Shown here: positions 6,935-33,894 of the stretch, piece by piece
Layout of the letters: the number at the start of each line of letters is the position of its first letter
Numbering within the stretch: position 1 is the stretch's first letter
NCBI RefSeq assembly: GCF_002929505.1
Contig: NZ_PJJL01000070.1
Location: 124,001-188,000 of the forward strand
Direction: 5' to 3'
DNA length: 64,000 nucleotides
From: Cryobacterium sp. Y57
GTDB taxonomy: Bacteria > Actinomycetota > Actinomycetes > Actinomycetales > Microbacteriaceae
Translations under genes and position numbers: made by a program
Notes under the pieces: model-generated
The model's input: only the letters and a program-made list of their open reading frames with translations
Databases searched by the model: none
Told to the model about the DNA's origin: nothing

Positions 6935-7843
6935 ATGGGTCACGATCACGCGCACGGCACCGACTCCAACCGGAGGCGACTGGCCCTTGTCATTGGCATT
7001 GTGTTCGTCGTGCTGCTGCTCGAGGCGATCGGTGCCTGGCTGACCGGATCGCTCGCTCTGCTGGCCGATGCGGGGCACATGCTGTCCGACCTGCTCGGGC
7101 TCATCGTTGCCCTGACGGCCACCGTCATGGCGGCACGCCCGGCGACGGACCGGGCCACCTTCGGTTTTCAGCGTACCGAGGTGTTCGGCGCGCTGATCAA
7201 CGGGTTGATCCTGCTTGGCGTGGCGGGCGTCGTTTCGGTCGCTGCGATCGCTCGCCTGATGGCGCCGAGCGAGAGCGCTGTGCTGCCAGCTCCCATGCTC
7301 ATCGTGGCCATCATCGGTCTGGCAGCGAACATCGCCGGAATGCTGCTGCTTCGTCCGGCGGCTGCCGGGTCGATCAACATGCGCGGCGCCTACCTCGAAG
7401 TGCTCGGCGACGCCCTGGGATCTGTTGCCGTGATCGTGGCCGCCATCAGTATTCTGATAACCGGTTTTGCCCAAGCGGATGCTGCCGCCTCGCTCGTCAT
7501 CGCCGCCATGATCGTTCCGCGCGCTTTCGTGCTGTTACGGGACGTCGTGCGTGTGTTCAGCCAGTCCACGCCGGCCGACACCGATATCTCCGAGATTCGG
7601 CGCCATCTGCTCGGCACGGATGGCGTGGTCGACGTGCACGATGTGCACGTCTGGGCCATCACCAGCGGTGCGCACGTGTTCACCGCGCATATCGTCGTGG
7701 AGGCGACCGTGCTGGCACAGGGCACCGACGCTTTGCTCGATGAGCTGTCGGGATGCCTCAGCAAGCATTTCGACGTCGCTCACTCAACCTTTCAGCTGGA
7801 ACCGACCGAGCACGCCGAGCATGAAGACCACCAGCACCGCTGA
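6935..7843 (+). CDS. Cation diffusion facilitator (zinc/cobalt/cadmium efflux, CzcD type)
   Basis: 302 residues with about six transmembrane helices and a cytoplasmic C-terminal domain. His-rich ends (GHDHAH at the N-terminus, HAEHEDHQHR at the C-terminus) and the intramembrane metal site residues in LLADAGHMLSD (helix 2) and a matching acidic/polar helix 5 (YLEVLGDALGS) identify a divalent-cation/H+ antiporter. ATG 6935 follows a -10-like TAACGT at 6923-6928. No dedicated metal regulator lies next to it. Confidence 0.9.
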   Translation: MGHDHAHGTDSNRRRLALVIGIVFVVLLLEAIGAWLTGSLALLADAGHMLSDLLGLIVALTATVMAARPATDRATFGFQRTEVFGALINGLILLGVAGVVSVAAIARLMAPSESAVLPAPMLIVAIIGLAANIAGMLLLRPAAAGSINMRGAYLEVLGDALGSVAVIVAAISILITGFAQADAAASLVIAAMIVPRAFVLLRDVVRVFSQSTPADTDISEIRRHLLGTDGVVDVHDVHVWAITSGAHVFTAHIVVEATVLAQGTDALLDELSGCLSKHFDVAHSTFQLEPTEHAEHEDHQHR

Positions 7844-7861
7844 GCGAATCAGATGACGGCC

Positions 7862-8599: not shown

Positions 8600-8906
8600 G
8601 CGGGGAACTCCAGTCGGCGGAGGGCAGACGTTCGGGAAGCGACGGCGGGTGCCGAGTCACACGGTAGCGTCGAATAGTGAGAGAACGCCGGGCCGCCGGG
8701 CCCTGAAACAGTGGGGGCCATCAGATAGTTGTGGGGCTGGTCGAGGTCGCGGGCCGTGCCATCCGCGCAGGACGCCCCTGCTGAACGGAATGAACGTTCC
8801 CAAAAAAATGCCGGTTCGGCAAAAACCGAACCCTCGCATGACCCGAAGGACGTCGACGATGCCCCCGTGGGAAGCATGCTGTCAAGGGCTGAAGGGCGAA
8901 CCATGT
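8600..8906. other. Intergenic region between DedA gene and tRNA-Leu
   Basis: About 300 bp. Open frames here have no supported start, Shine-Dalgarno sequence or family resemblance. It should hold the promoter of the minus-strand DedA gene and the 3' trailer of the minus-strand tRNA. No clear hairpin was found. Confidence 0.5.
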
Positions 8907-8987
8907 GCGGGAGAGGGGACTTGAACCCCCACGCTCGAAAGCACAGGATCCTAAATCCTGCGTGTCTGCCAATTCCACCACTCCCGC
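8907..8987 (-). tRNA. tRNA-Leu (anticodon UAG)
   Basis: 81 nt on the minus strand. Acceptor stem GCGGGAG/CTCCCGC closes 8981-8987 with 8907-8913. The anticodon stem CAGGA/TCCTG encloses the loop TTTAGGA, so the anticodon is UAG (reads CUA). A long variable arm and a GGTTCAAGTCC T-arm are present, as expected for class II tRNA-Leu. CCA is not encoded. Confidence 0.96.
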
Positions 8988-9054: not shown

Positions 9055-10005
9055 CTAATCGGCGGGGACCGTCCCCGCACTGACGTTACGGCCGAGTAGC
9101 GCCGGCGCATAAGACTCCATTTGCGCGCGGAGTGCCGCGACGAGCGCCGCGACGGCCGGCAGCCGCAATGACTCGGTGCGTAAAACCATCCAGTACGGCA
9201 GTCGTTCCTGAAAATCTTCTGGAAGGAGGCGCACCAGGTCTGTATGCTGATCGGCCATGAAGCAGGGCAGAAATCCAACTCCGGCGCCGGCCCGGGTTCC
9301 CTCGACGTGCACGAACACGTTGGTGGAGCTGAGCGACTCCCGCATCTGCGGCACGAGCCGCCGAGGGGCATCGAGATCGTCGACCTGAAGCATGGAATCC
9401 ACGAAATACACGAGGGGATGCTCGGTCAGCTCGGCAATGGTGGTCGGTGTGCCGTGGGCCTTGAGATAGTGCCGTGAGGCGTACATTCCGAGGCTGTAAT
9501 AACCGAGCAGAATCGACTCCGCCCGGTGCACCTGTGGCTCACCCACGACGACTTCGATGTCCAGTCCCGAACGGTGCTGCAGGGCCCGCCGGGTGACGGT
9601 GACGATTTCGACGCGCAAGAGCGGATGCCGGCGCTGCAGTACGGCCACGGCCGGGGCCGCGATATAGGCGCTGAAGCCGTCCGTCGCCGACATGCGCACC
9701 ACCCCGGAGATCTTTTGGGCTTCGGCGTCGGAACCACGCAATAGGCTGACCGCAGATTCCACCCCCTCGGCCGCGGTGCGGGCGCGTTTTCCGAGCTCGG
9801 TCAGCTCCCAGCCGCCCACGGCGCGGGCCAGGAGACGGCCGTCGAGGGCCTTTTCGAGGGCGGTGATGCGCCGGGACACCGTGGTGTGGTTCACGCCCAG
9901 GCTTTCAGCCGCGGTGGTGAATCGGCCGGTGCGGGCGACCGCGAGAAAGATGAGGAGATCATCGGGAGTGGGAGCGGTGCCAGCCGGCGGAAAGGTCATA
10001 CGCAA
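9055..10005 (-). CDS. LysR-type transcriptional regulator
   Basis: About 316 residues (an alternative ATG gives two fewer). The N-terminal winged helix-turn-helix, roughly residues 15-75 (FLAVARTGRFTTAAESLGV, TTVSRRITALEKAL), is followed by a periplasmic-binding-protein-like effector domain. Length is typical. No obvious target is divergently transcribed; the gene downstream on the same strand is the APH-like kinase at 10012-11055, which belongs to another operon. The effector cannot be told. Confidence 0.9.
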   Translation of the reverse strand: MRMTFPPAGTAPTPDDLLIFLAVARTGRFTTAAESLGVNHTTVSRRITALEKALDGRLLARAVGGWELTELGKRARTAAEGVESAVSLLRGSDAEAQKISGVVRMSATDGFSAYIAAPAVAVLQRRHPLLRVEIVTVTRRALQHRSGLDIEVVVGEPQVHRAESILLGYYSLGMYASRHYLKAHGTPTTIAELTEHPLVYFVDSMLQVDDLDAPRRLVPQMRESLSSTNVFVHVEGTRAGAGVGFLPCFMADQHTDLVRLLPEDFQERLPYWMVLRTESLRLPAVAALVAALRAQMESYAPALLGRNVSAGTVPAD

Positions 10006-10011
10006 TTATGC

Positions 10012-11055
10012 CTAGGCGCCCGGCTGCCGGCAGGTCTCGGCGCGCAGCACCGCGGCGAGCGCGGCCCATCGGGGTCGGAAGGCGTAAAGGCAGCCCAGAC
10101 GAAACCAAGCCGCAGCTTCGTATGCGTTCACGCGTTCGGGACCGACGTGAAGTTCGTCGGCGACCGAATCGATCAGGCGTGCGGCGTGCGTGCGGCGTTC
10201 GGAGCTGAGAAGCCCCTGCCGCTCGCGAAGCGCCAGGTGCGCGCGCAAATTGCCCAGGTCGAGAGCAGGCTCCGCATTCGCTGCGGTGTCGAAGTCGATC
10301 AGACCGCTACCGTGCGTGGAATCCCACAGAATCTGTTTGTCGTGCAGGTCTCGATGGGCCGGGCGCAATGCGTCGGCTGTTCCAGCGACCAGCCCGGCGG
10401 CAACTCGATCGGCGACCTGCACGAGGCGAGACGACGAGGGTGACGGGGTGAAACTGGTCAGTTTCGCCGCCCACGACCGTACGATGGCCGCTTCGGCGAA
10501 CGCGTCGTGCGCGGGAAGTGACGGATCTGCCGGTGCGGAGCCGATCGAATCCACCCACGCGCTGCGCCAGGCGTGCCAGCCGCGACCCCACTCGAGGCCA
10601 GCGGCCGGATCCGCTCCGAGATCATGCAGTGAGCGTCCGGGAACGGTGGTGGCGGTGACGACGTCTCTCGTCACTGCCACGATGCGCGGCTGGAGGAAAG
10701 CGGATGCCAGCCCCTCGACGTTTTGCATTGCCGCCACTGCAGCGGCCGCGCGACCCGGCCGAAAGACCTTCGCGTAATTCGAGCCATCTGCAGAACGCAC
10801 GACAGCGCGACGCCCGGGACGGTGTACCACGATCCAACCCGATCGGGCGGTAGCGGTGAGGTCGGGGAGCTGGTCGTCGTGGCCGAAGCGGCCGAGGACG
10901 GCGCCGCTTGACGCTGTCCAACGGCCACCACGTACCTGACCGTCGCGACCGGCCCGCGCCTCGAAGGTCGCTCCGCTATGACGATCAGGCCAGGCGCGTT
11001 CAATCTGCCAGGTGGTTCCGTCGTCGTCGGCGCTGGGGGGCAGTGAAAGCATCAT
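10012..11055 (-). CDS. APH-fold phosphotransferase, last gene of glycosyltransferase/ABC operon
   Basis: 347 residues. The catalytic loop AHRDLHDKQ and the metal-binding IDFD put it in the aminoglycoside-phosphotransferase/choline-kinase superfamily, where Asp in HxD acts as base and DFD binds Mg-ATP. The N-terminal 100 residues match no resistance enzyme. The start codon overlaps the stop of the upstream kinase gene by 4 bp (ATGA). Given three glycosyltransferases and an exporter in the same operon, a sugar or lipid-linked intermediate is a more likely substrate than an antibiotic; this is inference. Confidence 0.8.
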   Translation of the reverse strand: MMLSLPPSADDDGTTWQIERAWPDRHSGATFEARAGRDGQVRGGRWTASSGAVLGRFGHDDQLPDLTATARSGWIVVHRPGRRAVVRSADGSNYAKVFRPGRAAAAVAAMQNVEGLASAFLQPRIVAVTRDVVTATTVPGRSLHDLGADPAAGLEWGRGWHAWRSAWVDSIGSAPADPSLPAHDAFAEAAIVRSWAAKLTSFTPSPSSSRLVQVADRVAAGLVAGTADALRPAHRDLHDKQILWDSTHGSGLIDFDTAANAEPALDLGNLRAHLALRERQGLLSSERRTHAARLIDSVADELHVGPERVNAYEAAAWFRLGCLYAFRPRWAALAAVLRAETCRQPGA

Positions 11056-12317
11056 GATTCCAGCACCTGTTCGGCGGCGGTGAGAATGTGTTCGACGTCA
11101 CCGACCCAGTCCGCGGCCCGGTACCGGAACGGATCGATGGCGCGGCTGAGCAGCGCGTGAGCGAGCCAGCTGTTGATCGCATCCGGGTGCAGTTCGCCGC
11201 CCGCGTCGGCGTAGCCGTCAAACAGGGCGACGGCGAGGTCCGGGCTCCTGAGGATGATGGCGGCCGCGGCGAAGGAACCGAGGTCGCGCTCCGGATCCGA
11301 CCAGCCGACCCGATCGAAATCGATCAGGTGGATCTCGCGGGGTCTAACGAGCACCTGATCGGGCGAGAAATCACCGTGGGTGAGAACTGGGTTGCTGGGC
11401 CGGTCCGATGTGGCACGGCGATTGTTGATGGCCTGGGCCAGTCGGTGCGCGCGGTGGGCGAATTCGGGCAGGACGACCGCAATGGCGCCCGCCGCACGCG
11501 CGGATTCGGATTCGGCCAACGCCGGGTCGGCGGTGCGGGCGCCGATCGCAAACTGGCCGGGTGCCAGGCGGAGGGAATGCAGCGCTGCCAGCGCCCGCCC
11601 GGCCGCACCCGCCGCATCCGTGCTGTGGACGGCGGCGAGGTCACCGGTACCCCACCAGTGACCGGCGACGACATCACGCAGGCCTCCGGGATGCCATAAC
11701 CGAACGACCGGAATGCCCTCGGAAGCAAGGTGATCGAGAAATTCGACCTGACGGAATTGTTGGTCGGCCCTTGCGCGGTGGGTGCGCGGCGTGACCTTGA
11801 CGACGAGATCGGTCGCCCCCGACGTGCGCAGGAGCAACCGCCGGTGCGGGTTGTGCCGGAGCAGGGTCGATGTTTCGGTCAGTTCAGGGCAGACCTGATC
11901 CAGCCGCGTGAGAGTACCGGCGAGCCTGCGGTCAGCTGATGCCGTGCCGTGCACGGTTCCCCGGATACCCTCCATTCGTGCGGCAGCGGCGTTGCCGCGT
12001 CGCGCGTTCATCAGACTCTTGTCCACCTTGCTGTCGTCGACATAGCTGGCGAGCCAGCCGTGGTCACCCCACCGGTCGTGCGGTTCGGCGAAACGGTCGC
12101 TGGAGTAGGTGATCACCACGCTTGATGCCGGCTTGTAGCGGATGCGGGTGACGTGTGCCGGGCAGTTGAGTGCGGCGGACAGCTCCTCGTCGTCGTTGAA
12201 AACCAGTCGGAGCGCCGCCACGCGGGGATCCCGAGAGATCAGATCCTGCTCAGCGGCGTGAGACCTCGCCGTGACGCGGCCGTTCGGCAGCGGGCTCGTA
12301 ATGGCCATCATCGTCAC
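11052..12317 (-). CDS. APH-fold phosphotransferase
   Basis: About 421 residues from GTG 12317, which overlaps the stop of the ABC exporter gene (GTGA). ATG codons at 12311 and 12308 are alternatives; an upstream start at 12434 would overlap the exporter gene by 120 bp and is rejected. The C-terminal half has THGDFSPDQVLV and LIDFDRVGWSDPERDLG, the catalytic and metal-binding loops of the APH superfamily. The N-terminal part resembles a degenerate N-lobe. Two different kinases of one superfamily side by side suggest two phosphorylation steps or one active and one accessory subunit. Confidence 0.78.
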   Translation of the reverse strand: MTMMAITSPLPNGRVTARSHAAEQDLISRDPRVAALRLVFNDDEELSAALNCPAHVTRIRYKPASSVVITYSSDRFAEPHDRWGDHGWLASYVDDSKVDKSLMNARRGNAAAARMEGIRGTVHGTASADRRLAGTLTRLDQVCPELTETSTLLRHNPHRRLLLRTSGATDLVVKVTPRTHRARADQQFRQVEFLDHLASEGIPVVRLWHPGGLRDVVAGHWWGTGDLAAVHSTDAAGAAGRALAALHSLRLAPGQFAIGARTADPALAESESARAAGAIAVVLPEFAHRAHRLAQAINNRRATSDRPSNPVLTHGDFSPDQVLVRPREIHLIDFDRVGWSDPERDLGSFAAAAIILRSPDLAVALFDGYADAGGELHPDAINSWLAHALLSRAIDPFRYRAADWVGDVEHILTAAEQVLES

Positions 12318-14122
12318 GACCGGATCCGAACGGTCGTCTCCTGCTCGGCCAGCCAGTTTGACAGCCGGCTGCCGGGTGACTTGAGAAGTTCTGCCGGGGA
12401 CCCATCTTCGACGATCCGACCGTCTTCGAGCCACAGCACCCGGTCCGCGCGATGCACGGCGTGGGAAGCATGGGTGATCGTGATGACCGTTCGACCCCGA
12501 ATAAGGGTTTCCATCGAGGCTTCGACGACGCTGCGACCGCTGGGGTCGAGACCGGTCGTGGCCTCGTCGAGGATGACGATGGGGGCATCGCGCAGGACGG
12601 CACGAGCAATGGCGATGCGTTGGCGTTGGCCGCCCGACAAGGTGTTGCCACGACCGCCGAGTATCGTCTCGAAGCCGCTCGGCAGGGCGGTGATGAATTC
12701 TTCGGCATTGGCAATCCGGGCCGCGTCCTCGACGTCGGCGTCGGTCGCGTCTAGGCGACCGTAGCGGATGTTCTCCCGCACGGTCGTGGCGAACAGCACG
12801 GAATCCTGCAGCAGGATCGACACCTGCCCGCGCAGGCTGCGCAGCGTCACCTCCCGCACGTCGGTGCCGTCAATGCGCACGCTGCCGGAGGACGGGTCGA
12901 CCATGCGCAGGATAAGACCGACCAGGGTGGATTTGCCTGAGCCGGACGGACCGAGCAGACACACATTCTGCCCGGCCGGAATCTCGAGCGACAGCCCGGC
13001 GAACAACGGCCGGCCGTAGCCGTCCGGGGCGTGCACGTCCTTGAACGTCAACCGGCCCATGCTGTGGTCGAGCGGCCGAGCGGTCGGCGAATCGAATACC
13101 TCGATGGGTTCGGCGAGGAGTTCGGCGATGCGTTCGCCCGAGGCGGTGGCCCGCGCGATGCGCCCGGTGTACTTGGCCAGGTCGCGCAGCGGTTTCATGG
13201 CGATCTTGAGATACATCATGAACATGACCAGTTCGCCGAGAGTCATCTGCCCGTCGATGACGCGCCATCCGCCTCCGGCGAGCACGATCGCGGTCGCGAC
13301 TCCGACGATGATGTCGGTTCGGCGTTCGAGCCCGGCAGCCAGACGGCGACTTTTGATCCCCTCGCGCAGCGCGGTCTCATTGCCGCTGCGGAAGGCTCCG
13401 GAGACGGTGTGCTCCAGACCGTATGCCTGGACCACCCGGATAGCATCGAGCGTTTCGGCTGCGGTATTAGCGAGTGATCCTTCGCCCTTCCTGGTGGTGC
13501 GGGAAGCGGAGGTGATGGCACGTGAACTGCGTCGCGACGACAACAGGTACGCTATGGCCGCGCCCACAACGACGAGGGCGAGGAGCGGATCCAGCACGAC
13601 CATGACGATCGTGAGCACGAAGAATGTCAGCACGTTGGCGAAAAGTGGAAGCCCGGCCGTGACGGCGACTTCCTGCAGCCGGCCGATGTCTCCGACCAGG
13701 CGTTGCACCGTATCACCGGACCTGGCGGCGGCGTGGTAGCGCAGGGAGAGTTCCTGAACGTGGGTGAACACCCGCGTACGCAGGTCGGTCGCAACGCGAG
13801 ACCCGACGAGGGCGAACGCTACCGTGCTCAGATAGCTGCTCACGGCGCGCCCCGCCGTCAGCGCCACCAGAGCTGCTCCGCAGACGAGCAGCAGCCCAAT
13901 GGTCGCCGGCGGCGTGGTTGAGCCGGCCGGAAGGGTGGCGCCGAGACTGGCCGTGACCGAATCGATCACGAATTTCACCGGCCACGGTTCGAGAACGCAC
14001 AGCGCGACCTCGATCAGCAGCGCGATCAGGCCGCCGCTGACCAGTTTCCAGTGCCGTCCGATGTGGGGGCGGACGATGCGCAGGCTTTGACGTAGGGCAC
14101 TGGGCTCGCGTGAGCGCGTCAT
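12314..14122 (-). CDS. ABC exporter, fused transmembrane and ATPase domains
   Basis: 602 residues from ATG 14122, which overlaps the upstream glycosyltransferase stop (ATGA). Residues about 1-320 hold six transmembrane helices (type I exporter fold); residues about 360-600 are the ATPase with Walker A GPSGSGKST (about 392), Q-loop ILLQDSVLF, signature LSGGQRQR (about 494), Walker B IVILDEAT and the H-loop TITHAS. A half-transporter that should work as a homodimer like MsbA-type lipid flippases. In an operon with three glycosyltransferases it is the obvious candidate for moving the finished glycolipid or glycoside across the membrane (inference). Confidence 0.9.
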   Translation of the reverse strand: MTRSREPSALRQSLRIVRPHIGRHWKLVSGGLIALLIEVALCVLEPWPVKFVIDSVTASLGATLPAGSTTPPATIGLLLVCGAALVALTAGRAVSSYLSTVAFALVGSRVATDLRTRVFTHVQELSLRYHAAARSGDTVQRLVGDIGRLQEVAVTAGLPLFANVLTFFVLTIVMVVLDPLLALVVVGAAIAYLLSSRRSSRAITSASRTTRKGEGSLANTAAETLDAIRVVQAYGLEHTVSGAFRSGNETALREGIKSRRLAAGLERRTDIIVGVATAIVLAGGGWRVIDGQMTLGELVMFMMYLKIAMKPLRDLAKYTGRIARATASGERIAELLAEPIEVFDSPTARPLDHSMGRLTFKDVHAPDGYGRPLFAGLSLEIPAGQNVCLLGPSGSGKSTLVGLILRMVDPSSGSVRIDGTDVREVTLRSLRGQVSILLQDSVLFATTVRENIRYGRLDATDADVEDAARIANAEEFITALPSGFETILGGRGNTLSGGQRQRIAIARAVLRDAPIVILDEATTGLDPSGRSVVEASMETLIRGRTVITITHASHAVHRADRVLWLEDGRIVEDGSPAELLKSPGSRLSNWLAEQETTVRIRS

Positions 14123-15354
14123 CGTCGGCCACCGATCAGCAGCGCGGGTTGCGGCGCGACCGCGTCGGCGGCCTTCAGCTGCGCTTGGTCGGCCGCGCTG
14201 AGGTGGCCGAGGATCCGGCCCACTACAGCCCACCAGTCATGCCGCTCAACGGCGAGTGCGCGTGCGGCGCGGCCCAGTCGCACGCGCAGGGCACGATCGT
14301 CATTCACCCGGCCGAGCGCATCCGCGAGGGCCACCTCATCGCCGGGCGGAACGAGCAGCCCGGTGCAGTCGTCGACGATGACGGTGGGAATCTGGCCCAC
14401 CGCCGAAGCGACGACGGGGAGTCCCGCTGAAAGGTACTCGTAGAGTTTGAGGGGAGAGAAGTATTGGTCCTGGCCGGCCGGATACGGTGCGGCGGCCACG
14501 TCGAAGCCTGCCAGCAGCTCGGGCACCCGTTCCGGCGCCACGGCCCCGGTGAACTCCACATCGAGCGGGTAATTCGAAGCCAGCTGGCGCAGCGCCGCCC
14601 GTTCTGGCCCATCGCCCACGATGCGCAGGCGCCACGGCAGTTTGGCGGCACGCCGACCGGAATTCGCGCGTGCGGCAGATTCAGCCCGGGCGGTGGCGCG
14701 GATCAGTACATCGACGCCATGCCACGGTTTCAGGGTGCCGATGAAGCCGACGGTGAACCCGGACGTCACTGACGCGTGCGCTGGGGGCACGATACGCCGG
14801 GTATTCACTCCATTCGCAACGACTGTGATACGACGAGGCGATGTTGTGAAGGGTCGGACCCAGGCGGCGACGGGCTCGGAGACGCACACGACCACGGCTG
14901 CGGCCGTCACCACCCGCCTGGTGTCGGCACGGGCGCCGGCCTCGTCCACGAGGGTACGATGCGTGCGCTGTTCATCGATGAGCGGGGCGTTGACTTCGAG
15001 GATCACGGGGGACCCCGTTGCGCGGGCGATGACGGCCGAGGCTGTGCTGAACAAGGAGTAGCGCTCGTAGACGAGGTCGCATCCGTCTTCGATCGCGGCG
15101 TCGGCGAGGCTCTGCGCGGCGCTGGCGATGGCGCGTTCCCGTTCGGCTGGTGACTCGGTGGCCGCTACCGTGCGCACGACGACGGGGAGGTCGTGCAGGT
15201 CAGCCGGTACGTCGCTGCCACGCCGGGTGCAGTACACGGTCACGGTCATATCGCGGTCCCGGAAGGCGCGCACCACTTCTTGCACGTGCACCGAGGAGCC
15301 CTTCGTGCCGAAGACGGGAACACCGGGGTCGACACACAGATAGGCGACGCGCAT
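14119..15354 (-). CDS. Glycosyltransferase, GT4-like
   Basis: 411 residues from ATG 15354. GT-B fold features: an N-terminal domain with GTKGSSVHVQEVVRAF (GT4 acceptor side), then GFIGTLKPWHGVDVLI and the nucleotide-sugar region FSPLKLYEYLSAGLPVVAS, containing the glutamate of the EX7E motif. The start overlaps the stop of the preceding glycosyltransferase by three bases. A longer frame from 15429 would overlap that gene by 75 bp and has no family resemblance. Retaining sugar transfer from a UDP/GDP-sugar is expected; donor and acceptor are unknown. Confidence 0.87.
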   Translation of the reverse strand: MRVAYLCVDPGVPVFGTKGSSVHVQEVVRAFRDRDMTVTVYCTRRGSDVPADLHDLPVVVRTVAATESPAERERAIASAAQSLADAAIEDGCDLVYERYSLFSTASAVIARATGSPVILEVNAPLIDEQRTHRTLVDEAGARADTRRVVTAAAVVVCVSEPVAAWVRPFTTSPRRITVVANGVNTRRIVPPAHASVTSGFTVGFIGTLKPWHGVDVLIRATARAESAARANSGRRAAKLPWRLRIVGDGPERAALRQLASNYPLDVEFTGAVAPERVPELLAGFDVAAAPYPAGQDQYFSPLKLYEYLSAGLPVVASAVGQIPTVIVDDCTGLLVPPGDEVALADALGRVNDDRALRVRLGRAARALAVERHDWWAVVGRILGHLSAADQAQLKAADAVAPQPALLIGGRR

Positions 15355-16631
15355 CAGGCCACCGCCATCGGTGCGAGTGACGCCGGGTGGTTCGCTAGTT
15401 GGCTCGCAGCAGAGTCGGTGTGGGCACACAACTCGCCCAGTACTCGGGCCTGACGGGCAGAATCGAACGACTCCTCGACCACCCGGCGGGCGTTTCGGGC
15501 GAGCCGACCGAGGTTCGCGGCGGGATCAGCGGCTCCGCGCATGGCAGCCACCAGGTCGTCAAGACTGCCGGAGCGGCACAGGATTCCGGTCTCTCCCGCG
15601 CGGACGATCTCGGGGATACCCGTCACATCCGTTGAAATGCAGGGAACGCCGAGGGCCATCGCCTCGAGTATGGAGGTGGGGAGCCCATCGGCGTTGCCAT
15701 CGCTGCCGACGATGCAGGGAGCGACGAACAGGTCAGCGGCAGCCAGCCGCAGGGCCACCTCGGTCTGCGACACCGGGCCGAGCAGCCGAACGATACCGAA
15801 CAGTCCGAGACGATGGATCTGTTCGCTCAAAGCCCCGGTCAGTTCGCCCCCGCCCACGATGTCCACGGTCAGCGCGACGCCGCTATGGTGCAGTGCGTGC
15901 GCCGCATCGACCAGCAGGCTGAAGCCCTTTTTCTCGACCAGGCGACCAACAGCGATCACCGCGAGGGGCGCACTGGGTGGTCGGTGCTCGGTGAATGGAA
16001 AGCGGGCGAGTTCCAGTCCGTTGTAAACCCGGTGCAGTCGTAAGGTCTCGGCCGGGAACCGGCGACGCAGATAATCGAAGTTGTATTCGCTCACCGTTAC
16101 GGCATGATGGGCCCCGGCCAGTTTCACAGCCAGGTCCGTCGGGTCCACTGACTCGTGGAAAAGATCTTTGGCGTGAGCCGTGAATGAGTACGGCACCCCC
16201 GTGAGCAGCGACGCCAGGCGGGCCACCGTTGTGGCGACCGAGGCGAAGTGGGCGTGCAGATGGGTGATGCCGTATTCCCTGACGGCGCGGGCCAGGCTGA
16301 CCGCCTGCACCGCGTCGTCGACATCGGCCAGCAGCAACTCGTCGAGACAGGCGGACATTGCCGACCCGACGCCGGTCTTGGCCGTGGACTGGAATTCCGC
16401 CCAGAGCAGGGAGGTTTTCCACGGCCGGTCGATGTAGACGACCGGCGCGGCCACGCGGGCTAGTTCCGCATGAAAGCGAGAATCGACCGGCGGCCGCAGG
16501 GAGAAGATGACCAGATTCTCACCGGCGGCTTCGCGGGCGAGGATCTCGGACACGACGAACGTCTCCGAGAGCCGGGGATACATTTTGAGCACGTAGCCGA
16601 TCCGAGGGGATCCGGAATGGTCAGACAGCAT
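15354..16631 (-). CDS. Glycosyltransferase, GT4-like (colanic-acid-type)
   Basis: 425 residues. The N-terminus RIGYVLKMYPRLSETFVVSEI is typical of WcaL/AmsK-like GT4 enzymes that extend exopolysaccharide repeat units. Later segments HLHAHFAS, AVGRLVEKKGFSLLVDA and GLPTSILEAMALGVPCIST (with the conserved glutamate) complete the family. It overlaps the upstream gene by 11 bp and the downstream one by 3 bp. Cytoplasmic face of the membrane, acceptor probably lipid-linked (inference). Confidence 0.9.
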   Translation of the reverse strand: MLSDHSGSPRIGYVLKMYPRLSETFVVSEILAREAAGENLVIFSLRPPVDSRFHAELARVAAPVVYIDRPWKTSLLWAEFQSTAKTGVGSAMSACLDELLLADVDDAVQAVSLARAVREYGITHLHAHFASVATTVARLASLLTGVPYSFTAHAKDLFHESVDPTDLAVKLAGAHHAVTVSEYNFDYLRRRFPAETLRLHRVYNGLELARFPFTEHRPPSAPLAVIAVGRLVEKKGFSLLVDAAHALHHSGVALTVDIVGGGELTGALSEQIHRLGLFGIVRLLGPVSQTEVALRLAAADLFVAPCIVGSDGNADGLPTSILEAMALGVPCISTDVTGIPEIVRAGETGILCRSGSLDDLVAAMRGAADPAANLGRLARNARRVVEESFDSARQARVLGELCAHTDSAASQLANHPASLAPMAVA

Positions 16632-17808
16632 GTTGCACCTCCGCGGGTTCGCGAACCCGCTGTTTGGAATTGAGTAGTGCCGCCGCGAGCACGGCGACTG
16701 TCTCCAGGCCGTCGAGGTTCACTGCGCTGCGCGGAACGACCCGGCCGACGTTCGCAGCGAACCAGGCCGACAGGAAGGCCGGAGTCGCGGTGTCTGTCGT
16801 CACGGTCTCGACGAGTCCGCGGCGGGCCAGTGCTGCGGCGCGAATCGTCTGCTCCTGCCGTCGGGCCTCGCGCGGTACGACCAGGGTGGGCGCAGCGGTC
16901 GTCATCACTTCGCTGATCGAGTTGTATCCGCCCATACACACGACGGCGGCTGCGCGGCGGAGTAAGGCGAGGGCATCCGGAACCGAACGCAGGATGCTCG
17001 TGCCCTCGCGTGCCACGGACGTGATCTCGGCATGATGGGCGTCGGGCATCTGTGGGCCGGTCACGACTAGATGTCGGTATCCGGGTGGCGCGGTCGCACG
17101 GGCCGCAGCCGAGGCGAGACGATGACCGTCGGAACCGCCGCCAACGGTGGTGAGGATGAAGGGCTCGCTGTCGCTCGTTGTATGCCCGATCGGCCGACCG
17201 TTGGCGAGGTAGCCGGTATGCACCGCGAGGTTGAGTAGCGAGGACGGGATTTCTCCGGTCTCGAATGCATTGTGCACGCGCGGGTCGCCGTACACCCAGA
17301 GCGCGTCGAACAACCGTCGGATAGCGCTGGCACCGCCGATGGCCCGCCACTCGGCGAGGGCGACGGCGGGACGGTCGAGCACCTCGCGAAGGCCAAGCAC
17401 GATGGCGCACTCGGGCCGGGTTGAGCGCAGGCTCACCAGGGCGCTTTCGAGTTCTCGGCGGGCGCCGAGTGCGTGCCGATCAACGATCAACAGGTCGGGG
17501 GCGAACTCGCGCAGGGCGACGCGCAGAATGCTGGCGCGAATCGACGTCATCGTGTCGATGCCCAGTGTGAGATGACGCGGGCGGTAGCCGTCAACACCGG
17601 TGGTGATGCCGGGCAGCACCAACCAGTCCCAACCGGCGGGAGTGGGGAAGGACGTTGCGGCACTCTGTCCGGTGACCAGAAGTCCGCTCACCGGTTCGTG
17701 GATGATGGACGGAAGGTACAACGACAGTGCGTGCGCGATGGCGAGGTTCCGCCGTACGTGTCCCAGCCCGATCGAATCGTGCGAGTACAAAACAATCCTG
17801 GTGACCAT
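16621..17808 (-). CDS. GT28/MurG-like glycosyltransferase, first gene of the operon
   Basis: 395 residues, ATG 17808 with a GGGAGGAA Shine-Dalgarno sequence just upstream. The N-terminus IVLYSHDSIGLGHVRRNLAIA is the nucleotide-fold start of MurG/GT28-like proteins; the C-terminal domain has TVGGGSDG, VVCMGGYNSISEVM (the UDP-sugar binding loop) and TLVVPREARRQEQ. It heads a six-gene overlapping operon that ends at 10012. The substrate is unknown. Confidence 0.88.
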   Translation of the reverse strand: MVTRIVLYSHDSIGLGHVRRNLAIAHALSLYLPSIIHEPVSGLLVTGQSAATSFPTPAGWDWLVLPGITTGVDGYRPRHLTLGIDTMTSIRASILRVALREFAPDLLIVDRHALGARRELESALVSLRSTRPECAIVLGLREVLDRPAVALAEWRAIGGASAIRRLFDALWVYGDPRVHNAFETGEIPSSLLNLAVHTGYLANGRPIGHTTSDSEPFILTTVGGGSDGHRLASAAARATAPPGYRHLVVTGPQMPDAHHAEITSVAREGTSILRSVPDALALLRRAAAVVCMGGYNSISEVMTTAAPTLVVPREARRQEQTIRAAALARRGLVETVTTDTATPAFLSAWFAANVGRVVPRSAVNLDGLETVAVLAAALLNSKQRVREPAEVQHAV

Positions 17809-18128
17809 GGCATTCCTCCCGGGTTTCGACCGTCGTGGTCGTGAAATCAGAGTCCGGCCTGCGCGTGAGGTACGGATGAGTAAACAGTGAGTGAATTCTT
17901 AGGGATCACATATGAACTGGCGGTGCAGTGCCTGAGTAAATTCGGAACGGGCACCCCGTTGAGCCATGATCTGCGATTATGCACATCGGCTCTGTTTTTT
18001 TGGTTCTTGTTACCAGCCCGTTGTGCGTGGATACTCAGACACGTCGTACTTTTGTGGGGGCGACCGATTCCTTACCGCACGCCGCTGCGGCCAAGTACGT
18101 GTCATCGACGACACAAAGGAGACAGTCA
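17809..18128. other. Divergent intergenic region (glycosyltransferase operon / MHS permease)
   Basis: 320 bp between two divergent start codons. It must hold promoters for both directions. AT-rich patches (around 17975-18010, with a run of seven T) stand out against the GC-rich surroundings. No clear operator or ORF was recognised. AAGGAG at about 18116-18121 is the Shine-Dalgarno sequence of the permease. Confidence 0.5.
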
Positions 18129-19719: not shown

Positions 19720-20541
19720 ATGACTGATCTCACCGATGCCGCCGCCGATCGTGTCACCGCCGCTCCCGTTCGCACCAGTGCGCAGCCCCTCGCCGGGCGT
19801 CGCGCTCTCGTCACGGGTGGTGCGAGCGGCATCGGCGCCGCCGTCGTTCGGGCGCTCGCTGCCCGCGGCGCGCACGTCGTCGTTGCCGACATCGACACCG
19901 CCGGTGCCACCGCCCTGGCCGAGGAGGTCGGTGGGTCGATCTGGATCGTCGACCTCATGGAGACCGCCGCCCTCACCGACGAGGCGCTCGCGTCTGCGCT
20001 CGCAGGGGTGGACATCCTGGTCAACAATGCCGGCATTCAACGCATCAACCCGATCCAGGACTTTAAGCCGGCCGATTTCCACAACATCCTGACCCTCATG
20101 CTGGAGGCGCCGTTCCTGCTGATTCGGGCCGTGCTGCCGCAGATGTATGCGGCGAACTTCGGGCGCATCATCAATGTGTCGTCGGTGCACGGCATTCGCG
20201 CCTCGCCGTATAAGAGCGCGTATGTATCAGCCAAACACGGGCTCGAAGGCCTGTCCAAGGTGACCGCGCTCGAGGGCGGCGCGCACGGAGTCACGAGCAA
20301 TTGCGTTGCTCCCGGCTATGTGCGCACGCCGCTGGTCGAGAAACAGATCACCGATCAGGCACTCGTGCACGGCATTCCGGAGTCGGCGGTGCTGAGCACG
20401 ATCATGCTCACCGAGAGCGCGATCAAGCGGCTGGTGGAACCGGCCGAGGTCGGCTCGCTCGTGGCCTGGCTCGCCTCCGACGACGCCGCCATGGTCACCG
20501 GGGCGAGCTACACGATGGACGGCGGCTGGTCGGCTCGCTAA
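19720..20541 (+). CDS. bdhA: 3-hydroxybutyrate dehydrogenase, short-chain dehydrogenase family
   Basis: 273 residues. NAD-binding TGGASGIG (about residue 32), NNAGIQ, and the catalytic Tyr168/Lys172 in YVSAK with the serine in NVSSVHG place it in classical SDRs. The segments NNAGIQRINPIQDF, HGIRASPYKSAYVSAKHGLEGL and SNCVAPGYVRTPLVEKQI are those of D-3-hydroxybutyrate dehydrogenases, which oxidise 3-hydroxybutyrate to acetoacetate. About 20 extra N-terminal residues precede the fold. AAAGGA precedes ATG 19720. Probably co-functional with the permease upstream. Confidence 0.87.
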   Translation: MTDLTDAAADRVTAAPVRTSAQPLAGRRALVTGGASGIGAAVVRALAARGAHVVVADIDTAGATALAEEVGGSIWIVDLMETAALTDEALASALAGVDILVNNAGIQRINPIQDFKPADFHNILTLMLEAPFLLIRAVLPQMYAANFGRIINVSSVHGIRASPYKSAYVSAKHGLEGLSKVTALEGGAHGVTSNCVAPGYVRTPLVEKQITDQALVHGIPESAVLSTIMLTESAIKRLVEPAEVGSLVAWLASDDAAMVTGASYTMDGGWSAR

Positions 20542-20636
20542 AGCGGGGTCGATCATTTTTTGCTGTTCAGAGGAGAAAAAAACAAGCCCTGTGGAGAATC
20601 CGCACGAAGAAGTGCAAAAGAGGCCATCATGCGGGC

Positions 20637-21869
20637 ATGACCGAAGCCGTTCGTATCATCACAGACCAGGTGCGCCAGCGGGTACGCCGCGAGGGCGTTG
20701 ACCTCGCGGCCAACAACGCGTTGGTGGAGCAGTACGTGCGCGACGAACTGCGCCGATACAGCGAGCGGGCGCTCGGCGGGCTCGCACCGATGATCGCCGA
20801 TGAGTACCAGGCCGCCCGCGAGGTCGTGGCCGCGCTCACCGGGTTCGGCGTGCTCCAGCCGTTTCTCGACGATCCGGAGATCGAAGAAATCTGGATCAAC
20901 GGCCCGGCCCGAGTGTTCGTAGCCCGAGATGGGGTACCCGAGCTGACCTCACTGCTGCTCGGCGAGCAAGACGTGCGTGACCTGGTCGAGCGGATGCTGC
21001 AGGCTTCCGGTCGCCGCGTCGACCTCTCGTCGCCGTTCGTCGACGCTTCGCTACCCGACGGTTCCCGGCTGCACGTGGTGATTCCAGACATTACGCGCAA
21101 GCATTGGGCGGTGAACATTCGCAAATTCACCCGGCGCATCCGCGATCTCAACCAGCTGGTCGGCCTCGGCGCGCTCACTCAGCAGGCATCCGATTTTCTT
21201 CGGATCTGCGTGCTGGGTGGGCAGAATATTCTGGTGTCCGGCGCCACCCAGACCGGCAAAACAACCATGCTGAACGCTCTGCTCTCATCTACGCGTCCGG
21301 GCGAACGCATCGTGACCGTGGAGGAGACCTTTGAACTCGACCTGTCGGCCCGTGATGTCGTCGCGATGCAGTGCCGGCAACCGAGTCTGGAGGGAACCGG
21401 GGAGATCACCCTGCGCCGGCTGATCAAGGAGTCGCTGCGCATGCGGCCCGACCGGCTCGTGGTGGGCGAGGTGCGCGAGGCGGAAAGTCTCGACTTGCTC
21501 ATCGCCCTGAACAGCGGGTTGCCCGGAATGTGCTCGATTCACGCCAACAGTGCCAGGGACGCGCTCGCGAAACTTTCAACCCTGCCGCTGCTGGCCGGCC
21601 GTAACATCGACTCCTCGTTCGTGCTGCCCACCGTGGCGGGCTGTATCGACATCGTGGTGCACTGTGAGATCGATCGCCACGGCCGCAGGCGGGTCACCGA
21701 AATCATCGCTCCGAGCGGCCAGTTAGCCGGCGTGACCATCGAGGCGAGCCCTCTCTTCCTCTCTTTGCATGGCCACCTCGAGCCGACCGGTTCGCATCCC
21801 ACCAAGCTCGCCAAGTTTCGCGCAGCGGGAGTCGATCCGGCGCAGGTATTGCGGCAGGGGGCCGCATGA
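20637..21869 (+). CDS. tadA: CpaF/TadA secretion ATPase of the Flp pilus
   Basis: 410 residues from ATG 20637. The GSPE-type ATPase core shows Walker A SGATQTGKTT (about residue 202), Asp box EETFELDL, Walker B-type LVVGEVRE and the His box SIHANSARDAL. An N-terminal helical domain of about 90 residues is normal for TadA. It forms a cytoplasmic hexamer driving pilin assembly. First gene of the Tad operon; it overlaps tadB by 4 bp. The septum-site/TadZ-type gene that often precedes it in actinobacteria is absent here. Confidence 0.94.
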   Translation: MTEAVRIITDQVRQRVRREGVDLAANNALVEQYVRDELRRYSERALGGLAPMIADEYQAAREVVAALTGFGVLQPFLDDPEIEEIWINGPARVFVARDGVPELTSLLLGEQDVRDLVERMLQASGRRVDLSSPFVDASLPDGSRLHVVIPDITRKHWAVNIRKFTRRIRDLNQLVGLGALTQQASDFLRICVLGGQNILVSGATQTGKTTMLNALLSSTRPGERIVTVEETFELDLSARDVVAMQCRQPSLEGTGEITLRRLIKESLRMRPDRLVVGEVREAESLDLLIALNSGLPGMCSIHANSARDALAKLSTLPLLAGRNIDSSFVLPTVAGCIDIVVHCEIDRHGRRRVTEIIAPSGQLAGVTIEASPLFLSLHGHLEPTGSHPTKLAKFRAAGVDPAQVLRQGAA

Positions 21870-22723
21870 CTCTCGTACTCGGGTGCCTGCTCGGGAGCGG
21901 TCTCGTCATGATTTTCGCGCCGTTACTGTGGCCGGCCGGGTCCACGCCCCAGCGGGCCCGAGTGGGCGAGCGGATGCGGGCGCGCCTGGTTCAAAGCGGG
22001 CTGCGGTCCGTTCCGGTGCCGGCATTCCTGACGTTGTCGGTGATCGTGGGTGTGGCATCCGCTGCCCTGATGCACGGAATCTTCGCGGTGCTCGCGCTCA
22101 GTGCTGTTGCCGGTCTGGCCGGGCTGTTACTGCCCTGGTCGATCGTGTCGTGGCGGGCGGCGGCCAGGCGCCGGGCCAATCGCACAGTGTGGCCCGATGT
22201 CGTCGATCATCTGGTGTCGGCACTCCGCTCCGGGCTGGCGTTGCCAGACAGCGTGAGCAGCCTCGCCCACGCCGGTCCGGTCGCGACAAGCATCGCTTTC
22301 GCCCAATTCGAGCGCGAATATCGCGCCACCGGCAATTTCAACTACTGCGTTGACGAGCTTAAACGTTCCCTCGCCGACCCGGTTGCCGACCGCATTCTCG
22401 AGACGCTGCGGATGGCTCGCGAAGTCGGCGGCAGCGACCTCACTGTCGTACTGCGCAGCCTTTCCGCTTGGCTGCGCCAGGATGCCGCGGTGCGGCTCGA
22501 GGTGGAAGCCCGCCAGTCGTGGGTTGTGAACGCCGCCCGACTGGGCGTGGCGGCACCGTGGATCATTCTTATTCTGCTCGCCTCCCGCCCCGAAGCGGCC
22601 ATTGCCTACAACTCGCCGGCCGGAATCGTCGTGATCGCGAGCGGCCTCGCCCTCTCGGTCATCGCGTATCGAGTGATGATCGCTCTCGGTCGACTTCCGG
22701 AGGAGCGCCGATGGTTCTCGTAG
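21866..22723 (+). CDS. tadB: TadB, type II secretion F-domain membrane protein
   Basis: 285 residues, ATG overlapping tadA (ATGA). Hydrophobic helices at the N-terminus and two at the C-terminus flank a cytoplasmic T2SSF domain (VWPDVVDHLVSALRSGLALPDSV to LRMAREVGGSDL). Inner-membrane platform of the Flp pilus, partner of TadC and of the TadA ATPase. Confidence 0.92.
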   Translation: MTLVLGCLLGSGLVMIFAPLLWPAGSTPQRARVGERMRARLVQSGLRSVPVPAFLTLSVIVGVASAALMHGIFAVLALSAVAGLAGLLLPWSIVSWRAAARRRANRTVWPDVVDHLVSALRSGLALPDSVSSLAHAGPVATSIAFAQFEREYRATGNFNYCVDELKRSLADPVADRILETLRMAREVGGSDLTVVLRSLSAWLRQDAAVRLEVEARQSWVVNAARLGVAAPWIILILLASRPEAAIAYNSPAGIVVIASGLALSVIAYRVMIALGRLPEERRWFS

Positions 22724-22730
22724 TCGACGG

Positions 22731-23669
22731 GTGCCGGTGAGCGCCGCATTTGGCTGGGCCGTGTTGTGCGGAACGGGCCTCGGTGTGGGGTTGTGGTCGC
22801 TCGTGAGCTTGACGCCGCGGCTGACCAGGCCCCGCCTGATCGACCGCGTGGTGCCCTACATTCTGGATATTTCTCCGGAAGCGCGCCGCATCGTCGCCCG
22901 GCGAACGGTGAACCCGATTCCCGTGCTGGGAAGCCTGTTCGCACCGCTGTTCGGCGTGCTGTCACGGGGGTTGTCGAGTCTTCTCGGCGGCAGCGAGACC
23001 GTTGCACGCCGACTGCACCAATCCGGGTCGGTAAAGACGGTCGAGGAGTTTCGTTCCGTGCAACTCGTCTGGGCCTTGCTGGCGTTCGCCGTCGGAACCG
23101 TGATCACCATCGTTGTGCTGTCCGAGCTGCTATTGGCCGCTCGTCTTTCGCTACCGTTCCTGGCAGCACTCGGCGGAGTCGTGTTGCGGGACTGGCTGCT
23201 CCACCGGGCCGCCACCGCACGACTGGCTCGGATGCGCAGCGAACTGCCGACCATTCTTGAATTTCTCACCCTGTCGCTATCGGCTGGAGAAGGCATTCTG
23301 GATTCGATCCGACGGGTGTCGCTCACGAGCACTGGGGAACTGTCTCGCGAATTCGCGGGCGTGGTTGCTGACGTTCATACCGGGATCCCCATTGGTTCCG
23401 CATTACAGTCGCTGTCGCGCAGCATCCAGTTGCCGGAGGTGACCCGGTTTGTCGACCAGGTGACCGGCGCGCTGGACCGTGGGTCGCCGCTGGCCGAGGT
23501 GTTGCGGGCGCAGGCGCAGGATTCCCGCGACCAGACCAAGCGCACGCTGCTCGAGCTGGCAGGCAAGAAAGAAGTTGCGATGCTCCTGCCGCTGGTTTTT
23601 CTGATTCTTCCGATGACTGTTCTGTTTGCCGTTTTTCCCGGACTCGTCGTGCTGCAGGCCGGGTTCTGA
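22731..23669 (+). CDS. tadC: TadC, type II secretion F-domain membrane protein
   Basis: 312 residues from GTG 22731 (GTG 22737 is an alternative). Domain order mirrors TadB: N-terminal helices, T2SSF domain (LPTILEFLTLSLSAGEGILDSIRR, FVDQVTGALDRGSPLAEVL), C-terminal LPLVFLILPMTVLFAVFPG helix. Second platform protein of the Flp pilus. Eight bases downstream of tadB. Confidence 0.92.
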   Translation: MPVSAAFGWAVLCGTGLGVGLWSLVSLTPRLTRPRLIDRVVPYILDISPEARRIVARRTVNPIPVLGSLFAPLFGVLSRGLSSLLGGSETVARRLHQSGSVKTVEEFRSVQLVWALLAFAVGTVITIVVLSELLLAARLSLPFLAALGGVVLRDWLLHRAATARLARMRSELPTILEFLTLSLSAGEGILDSIRRVSLTSTGELSREFAGVVADVHTGIPIGSALQSLSRSIQLPEVTRFVDQVTGALDRGSPLAEVLRAQAQDSRDQTKRTLLELAGKKEVAMLLPLVFLILPMTVLFAVFPGLVVLQAGF

Positions 23670-33519: not shown

Positions 33520-33894
33520 GGGGATGATCGGTTTCGACATTGTTTGCGCAATTGTGAGAAGCGGGTCGAGGATGCAGGGTTATCTCGTAAACGATCTCTG
33601 CAAAACAATAAGTGCCAAATCAAACCGCACTGACTTCGCTCTCGCTGCCTAAGCGAAAGCACTAACGAAGTCCGCCAGACCGGGAATGCTCTCTACCCGG
33701 ATCCTGACGCCATTTAGAGAGCTTGCTTCTACATTGAGCCACGGGGCGTAGAGGGACTCAAACGAAGGCTGGGCCTGTCGGAGTAGATGCCAGTGGCAAA
33801 TTCCGGGGCCGAGAAAGCGACTTCACTGGATACACCCGTAGAAGGCATATGACCACAGCAATGGACCGGGGTTCAATTCCCCGCATCTCCACCA
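33520..33894 (+). ncRNA. ssrA: Transfer-messenger RNA (tmRNA)
   Basis: 375 nt. The tRNA-like ends GGGGATG (33520-33526) and CATCTCC (33884-33890) pair to form the acceptor stem, with an encoded ACCA at 33891-33894 and a T-arm GGGGTTCAATTCCCC. The tag reading frame runs from GCC at 33614 to TAA at 33650-33652 and encodes AKSNRTDFALAA; the ALAA end is the protease recognition signal. Together with SmpB it rescues stalled ribosomes. Confidence 0.97.

What the first reader, a model, noticed from the sequence alone, without database searches (positions are those of the whole stretch)
10012..17808. Six-gene overlapping operon: three glycosyltransferases, ABC exporter, two different APH-fold kinases
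Every junction overlaps by 3-11 bases, so these proteins are made together. GT28-like, two GT4 enzymes and an MsbA-like exporter describe assembly and export of a glycolipid or glycoside. Two adjacent APH-superfamily kinases are unusual in this setting; they have catalytic HxD and DFD motifs but no resemblance to resistance enzymes. I know of no described pathway with this set; sugar-phosphate or lipid-phosphate modification during export is a hypothesis.
Basis: partly seen in the sequence, partly recalled or inferred. Interest (0 to 1): 0.72.

Follow-up and report, generated by a model that had tools for sequence, protein, structure and literature searches.

The report
Widespread glycan-export operon with two kinases
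Six tightly packed genes, found together in the same order in many bacteria, look like a small factory that builds a sugar compound, probably adds phosphate to it with two sugar-kinase-like enzymes, and pumps it out of the cell; what the compound is remains unknown.

Summary
Six minus-strand genes (17808 to 10012) of a Cryobacterium encode a MurG/GT28-like glycosyltransferase (A), two GT4s (B, C), an MsbA-like exporter (D) and two APH-fold kinases (E, F); junctions overlap by 11, 1, 4, 4 and 4 bases. The block is a clean ~7.96-kb insertion between an MFS and a LysR gene: 5 of 5 relatives fetched show the empty site. The order is not local. In 52 of 52 other fetched loci with all six genes, they lie on one strand in this order: many actinobacterial genomes, two Rhodobacterales plasmids and an E. 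coli plasmid. D is fused to E in 2 loci, E to F in 8 and B to C in 3, which ties the kinases to the exporter. Catalytic residues of both kinases are nearly invariant, so both are probably active. A UDP-glucose/GDP-mannose-type dehydrogenase gene lies directly after F in 9 of 58 loci. Best reading: cytoplasmic assembly of a short glycan, in some versions with uronic acid, phosphorylated by E and F at the exporter and exported by D. Product and kinase substrates are untested. Ten searches of an open-licence paper library found no description.

The parts
16621..17808 (-). gene A: MurG/GT28-like glycosyltransferase, 395 aa, motif YSHDxxGxGHxRRN
   Evidence: Pfam PF04101 24.6 bits, cut-off 22; 33-65% identity to the 8 other rows of A3, the lowest being E. 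coli; profile finds MurG 1f0k at 3.9e-8
15354..16631 (-). gene B: GT4 glycosyltransferase (EpsE/WcaL-like), 425 aa
   Evidence: Pfam Glycos_transf_1 102 bits; NCBIfam EpsE 175.1 bits, below its cut-off of 400
14119..15354 (-). gene C: second GT4 glycosyltransferase, 411 aa from ATG 15354
   Evidence: Pfam Glyco_trans_1_4 97.8 bits; start chosen by the overlap
12314..14122 (-). gene D: ABCB/MsbA-like exporter half-transporter, 602 aa
   Evidence: Pfam ABC_membrane + ABC_tran; MsbA_rel 388.1 bits, below its cut-off of 780.4; fused to E in L081 and L082
11052..12317 (-). gene E: APH-fold kinase, 421 aa from GTG 12317, with an extra N-terminal RYKPxxSxV motif
   Evidence: Pfam APH 70.9 bits; catalytic H and D in 58 of 58 rows without a gap there
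10012..11055 (-). gene F: second APH-fold kinase, 347 aa
   Evidence: Pfam APH 31.1 bits; H234, D236, Q241, D254, D256 in 57 of 57 rows; homologous to E over 270 columns, E 5.1e-19
10012..17972 (.). inserted block: absent in relatives, where MFS and LysR are directly adjacent
   Evidence: 5 of 5 fetched empty sites; boundaries read by eye
10002..10011 (+). left junction copy of the site repeat (GCAATTATGC)
   Evidence: comparison with empty sites
17973..17982 (+). right junction copy of the site repeat (GCGATTATGC)
   Evidence: comparison with empty sites

Best explanation
The operon is a self-contained glycan assembly-and-export module. Three cytoplasmic glycosyltransferases (A, B, C) build a short oligosaccharide on an acceptor, probably a membrane lipid. 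Two paralogous, catalytically competent APH-fold kinases (E, F) phosphorylate the glycan (or its acceptor) at the cytoplasmic side of the ABCB-type exporter D, and D then moves the phosphorylated product, in some versions with uronic acid, across the membrane. Shown: gene content, order, wide conservation, fusions, conserved catalytic residues, insertion as a unit, a recurrent adjacent UDP-glucose/GDP-mannose-type dehydrogenase and, in the two E. coli plasmids whose annotation I fetched, an alginate-export-type outer membrane protein. Inferred: that the glycan is the kinases' substrate, that it is short and lipid-linked, and that phosphorylation precedes export.
For: 52 of 52 fetched loci with all six genes keep strand and order within 7.3-8.9 kb; 31 of the 32 strong-F loci fetched are complete and the other is cut by its contig end. 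D-E fusion in 2 loci, E-F in 8, B-C in 3. Kinase catalytic residues nearly invariant in 59 E and 57 F rows. Dehydrogenase gene directly after F in 2 of 22 loci (L043, L045) and 7 of 36, and one gene further on in the E. coli plasmid, after an Alginate_exp protein. Pairwise distances of the six proteins correlate, r 0.77-0.91, 47 loci. Clean insertion of exactly this block in Cryobacterium.
Against: Pfam sees no initiating phosphoglycosyltransferase, polymerase or ligase among the six proteins, so acceptor and final location are guesses. The dehydrogenase gene was not found next to F in the other 48 of 58 loci, this window likewise having none (some loci are cut by contig ends). Kinase substrates cannot be read from sequence; at E's usual ATP-binding lysine arginine is commoner (31 R, 27 K), and F has lysine there in only 48 of 57 rows. 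The distance correlation was not corrected for the species tree. AlphaFold models were too poor to use.
Confidence: 0.5

Rival explanations
1. The kinases act upstream: they make sugar phosphates (for example sugar-1-phosphates, as maltokinase and anomeric kinases do; recalled) that feed the nucleotide-sugar donors used by A, B and C; the exported glycan itself is not phosphorylated.
For: E's catalytic loop HGDxxxDQ aligns with the maltokinase loop HGDLHLGQ, with Q in place of the N of the three other phosphotransferases shown (4h05, 6fuc, 8agy); both kinases are conserved.
Against: No clear nucleotidyltransferase among the 30 flank proteins scanned (a DUF427/'NTP_transf_9' protein beside L080 aside); the D-E fusions put a kinase on the exporter rather than on a donor-making enzyme.
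Confidence: 0.18
2. The product is a bioactive glycoside and the kinases protect the producer by phosphorylating it inside the cell before export, as recalled for streptomycin (APH(6) with ABC exporters StrV/StrW).
For: Kinases next to an ABC exporter, APH fold, corramycin phosphotransferase among the nearest solved structures.
Against: No scaffold-making or sugar-modifying enzyme among the six proteins; F-positive genomes are common in the order (68 of 396) with near-constant cluster content, which looks more like an envelope or matrix function; no phosphatase among the 30 flank proteins scanned.
Confidence: 0.1
3. E and F are regulatory or structural partners of the exporter (gating or energising it by ATP binding or protein phosphorylation) and do not modify the glycan.
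For: D-E and E-F fusions; the kinases are less conserved than the other four proteins (median pairwise identity 28% and 32% versus 42-49%); E often has arginine for the ATP-binding lysine.
Against: The catalytic H, D, Q and the DxD are kept in all 57 F rows and nearly all E rows; APH-fold kinases with small-molecule substrates are the norm (recalled).
Confidence: 0.12

Closest known systems
Sinorhizobium meliloti msbA2 operon (SMb21188-SMb21191; passages of PMC3687685 read)
   Same: Two glycosyltransferases and an acyltransferase in an operon with an MsbA-type exporter, proposed to make and export an unknown polysaccharide; activated by the ExoS/ChvI two-component system.
   Different: The fetched 14-kb region (L119) has one match above 60 bits, to profile D (259 bits, by position presumably MsbA2); none to A, B, C, E or F. 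No kinase is described.
Rhizobial and Rhodobacterales/Azospirillum clusters that start with an A-B pair (L052, L053, L055, L056)
   Same: A and B homologues in the same order, with polysaccharide deacetylase genes in the three annotated ones and nucleotide-sugar dehydrogenase in one.
   Different: No E or F match in the stretches fetched; in L053 and L055 the ABC protein that follows is a different, ~900-aa one; L052 and L056 have a histidine phosphatase instead.
Maltokinase (Mak/Pep2)
   Same: APH-fold sugar kinase; catalytic loop with Q; profile match 1.4e-6; length similar to E.
   Different: Only the C-lobe part aligns; its usual setting is trehalose/glycogen metabolism (recalled).
LxmK kinase of class V lanthionine synthetases
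   Same: Best NCBIfam hit of E (47.7 bits) and of the E. coli E (37.8 bits).
   Different: Far below the family cut-off of 315 bits; no lanthipeptide gene among the six.
PglK / MsbA lipid-linked glycan flippases
   Same: Same ABCB-type half-transporter architecture.
   Different: D scores 127.8 and 367.5 bits against cut-offs of 1000 and 602.

Membership tests
APH superfamily (Pfam PF01636) | Score above curated cut-off 23.2 bits | tested here: met
   E 70.9, F 31.1 bits
Aminoglycoside APH(3') resistance kinases (NF033068) | Score above curated cut-off 205 bits | tested here: not met
   E 29.9 bits; F no NCBIfam hit
Class V lanthionine synthetase LxmK (NF038156) | Score above curated cut-off 315 bits | tested here: not met
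   E 47.7 bits
Maltokinase | Catalytic loop HGDxxxxQ and full-length match | tested here: inconclusive
   Loop matches; against 4o7o only profile positions 185-332 of 381 align
Maltokinase | Phosphorylates maltose | not testable with these tools
   needs an enzyme assay
MsbA lipid A exporter (TIGR02203) | Score above curated cut-off 602 bits | tested here: not met
   D 367.5 bits
PglK LLO flippase (NF050066) | Score above curated cut-off 1000 bits | tested here: not met
   D 127.8 bits
MurG (TIGR01133) | Score above curated cut-off 250.25 bits | tested here: not met
   A 20.5 bits
S. meliloti msbA2 operon | Homologous glycosyltransferases beside the exporter | tested here: not met
   In L119 only D has a match above 60 bits
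Known anti-phage systems (PADLOC) | Matches to system-specific proteins | tested here: not met
   Only D has hits (mad3, mad8; I read them as generic ABC/ATPase similarity); none for A, B, C, E, F

The most novel reading that the evidence does not exclude
A previously undescribed class of glycan export in which a tandem pair of APH-fold kinases sits on an ABCB exporter and phosphorylates the glycan as an obligatory step of export, shared by Actinomycetota, Rhodobacterales and enterobacterial plasmids.
Probability: 0.3. Interest if true: 0.8.

Novelty: new variant of a known kind. Interest (0 to 1): 0.62.

Why it matters
If right, many bacteria carry an unrecognised pathway for a phosphorylated surface or secreted glycan, and two kinases that annotation calls 'aminoglycoside phosphotransferase' or 'phosphotransferase' are biosynthetic rather than resistance enzymes. 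The natural D-E and E-F fusions offer a handle to purify an exporter-kinase complex and ask whether transport depends on phosphorylation.

Tried and rejected
LysR (9055-9999) as a seventh operon gene: rejected. LysR homologues at E <= 1e-60 occur in 33 of 41 Cryobacterium genomes, whereas E was found in 3 of 37, and LysR abuts the MFS gene in 5 of 5 fetched empty sites.

E hits outside the cluster: L085-L088 are APH genes without matches above 60 bits to other cluster genes; L084 has in addition only a D-type ATPase match of 73.9 bits. L047 has only weak paralogues. These six were left out of the conservation counts.

Structure: two AlphaFold jobs with three near-identical rows gave mean pLDDT 34.6 and 44.2; no fold search was made with them.

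Extra N-terminal hairpin of E as a duplicated N-lobe: profile score 20.63 against a maximum of 16.92 in 100 column shuffles, but over only 18 columns and with 15% probability; against F's hairpin 18.08 versus a shuffle maximum of 17.97. Kept as a lead, not a result.

Defence system: PADLOC gave hits for D only. Two-component system as a fixed partner: response-regulator matches lie in 10 of 22 and 18 of 36 fetched loci, without a background control, and none in this window; not counted as a part.

Rows dropped: the distance comparison used 47 of the 52 complete loci; I left out L042, L153, L177, L185 and L186, whose genes are split or in several pieces. In the count of 52, L042 (D, E), L153 (A) and L177 (B) count as complete on their best-scoring piece. 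The 32 loci (L155-L186) are 32 of the 63 strong-F genomes not already examined, picked by me down the list, not at random.

Papers: ten searches. Seven returned nothing; two searches listed 15 of 47 and 15 of 357 papers, none of whose titles concerned this gene set; one search listed 7, of which I read passages of PMC3687685 only. The library holds only open-licence papers and most searches demanded several terms at once, so this is not proof that no description exists.
Full report
What is there. On the minus strand six genes run from 17808 to 10012: A (GT28/MurG-like), B and C (GT4), D (ABCB/MsbA-like exporter), E and F (APH-fold kinases) by Pfam. The likeliest starts give overlaps of 11, 1, 4, 4 and 4 bases.

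A mobile block with an empty site. E was found in 3 of 37 Cryobacterium genomes including this one. In 5 of 5 fetched relatives without it, the MFS gene and the LysR gene that flank the operon here are directly adjacent. The block occupies about 10012-17972, beginning at F's stop codon, and a short site (GCAATTATGC / GCGATTATGC) lies at both ends but once in the empty site. LysR homologues occur in 33 of 41 genomes of the genus, so LysR is a neighbour and not a member.

Conservation. tblastn showed the whole order in loci of other genera and families, and profile searches extended this to genomes of the same phylum but not the same class. Separately, a profile of F was run on 396 genomes of the order: 68 genomes, this one included, have matches at E <= 3.6e-44, separated from the next matches at 7.7e-28 or weaker (my count of the listing). 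Five of these had been seen already (this window, L043, L045, L046, L049); I fetched 32 more; 31 of the 32 hold all six genes in order and the other is cut by its contig end. Over all fetched loci, 52 besides the window hold all six genes and 52 of 52 have them on one strand in order A-F within 7.3-8.9 kb; three of these count on the best piece of a split gene (L042, L153, L177). The loci with cluster-type E or F but fewer genes are cut by contig ends (L039, L083, L089, L151, L152, L154, L156). Pairwise distances of the six proteins correlate (r 0.77-0.91, 47 of the 52 loci, permutation maxima 0.12-0.21), without correction for the species tree.

Outside Actinomycetota. Plasmids of Paracoccus aestuarii and Pseudorhodobacter turbinis carry A-B-C-D with E and F fused. 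The E. coli plasmid pCFSAN004179G (IncFIA, IncFIB) and plasmid pN96-1 carry six genes in this order, followed by an Alginate_exp outer membrane protein and a nucleotide-sugar dehydrogenase; the profiles of A-F were run on the first only. The kinase-E gene is on plasmids of 18 of 5,426 E. coli genomes and on no chromosome. Related rhizobial, Azospirillum and Ruegeria clusters have A and B but no match to the kinases.

Fusions. D and E form one reading frame in L081 and L082; E and F in L050, L058, L157, L159, L161, L166, L185 and L186 (and at lower score in L089); B and C in L164, L167 and L185. I inspected the joined frames of L050, L058, L081, L082 and L089; the others rest on the domain positions. 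A kinase on the exporter, and the two kinases on one chain, argue that D, E and F act together.

The kinases. E and F are homologous to each other (99.1% probability, E 5.1e-19 over 270 columns). In 57 F rows the catalytic H, D, Q, D and D are invariant; in 59 E rows H and D are kept in all 58 without a gap, Q in 57 of 57, D333 in 57 of 57, and D335 in 55 with E in 2. The Q replaces the N of three other phosphotransferases aligned and is shared there with maltokinase and the 'Kinase' of PDB 9dk1. At E's usual ATP-binding lysine (K174) arginine is commoner (31) than lysine (27), and F's K96 is lysine in 48 of 57 rows, while an additional N-terminal RxK motif of E (R60, K62) is nearly invariant (56 and 57 of 58). 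That extra motif may be a duplicated N-lobe hairpin, on weak evidence.

Neighbours. A gene of the UDP-glucose/GDP-mannose dehydrogenase family lies directly after F in L043 and L045 (2 of 22 loci; Pfam for L045) and, by tblastn, within about 150 bases after F in L159, L161, L163, L171, L173, L177 and L183 (7 of 36; F positions). In the E. coli plasmid it follows one gene later. This genome has one match of that family over the cut-off, on another contig. Two-component systems are common nearby but without a background control.

Mechanism. Shown: composition, order, co-inheritance, fusions, conserved active-site residues. Inferred: A, B and C build a short glycan, because three glycosyltransferases and no polymerase are present; D exports it; E and F phosphorylate it at D. 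Uronic acid in some versions is inferred from the dehydrogenase. Rivals are precursor kinases, self-protection of a bioactive glycoside, and regulatory partners.

Comparison with the known. E falls far below the cut-offs of the named kinase families it hits, F hits none, and D is below those of MsbA and PglK. The nearest described operon that I found, msbA2 of S. meliloti, shares only the exporter type in the profile test. Ten paper searches found no description of this set.

Noticed in passing
L054, L057 (E. coli plasmid NZ_CP012501.1) and L059 (pN96-1): In both fetched E. coli plasmids the cluster has an IS630 transposase gene upstream and a plasmid-borne fdnG/fdxH/fdnI-type formate dehydrogenase downstream (IS66 fragments between them in pN96-1), and an annotated heat-stable enterotoxin gene lies a few kb upstream. 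Sources of the 15 listed E. coli hits include cattle, a crow, a pig and lettuce.
   Followed up: partly
L038 about 7423-7850 (-), L049 12509-12970 (+): A small Thr/Pro/Ala-rich, apparently secreted or anchored protein lies between F and the response regulator, on the strand of the cluster, in two families; seen by eye only.
   Followed up: no
L052 and L056: Sister A-B clusters in Azospirillum and Ruegeria carry a histidine phosphatase gene where this cluster goes on with exporter and kinases.
   Followed up: no
L042 7020-10025: D and E are each split over two frames in this genome (decay or sequencing error); left as pieces.
   Followed up: no
L081 2404-3882 (+): An HTTM / vitamin-K-dependent gamma-carboxylase-like protein gene lies 5 bases upstream of A in the locus with the D-E fusion.
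   Followed up: no
window 33520-33894: tmRNA gene, tag AKSNRTDFALAA; ordinary.
   Followed up: no
window 20301-23669: Genes that look like a Tad/Flp pilus ATPase and two TadB/TadC-like membrane proteins by inspection of the translations; not searched.
   Followed up: no
window 8905-8987 (-): tRNA-Leu gene between the LysR and DedA genes.
   Followed up: no
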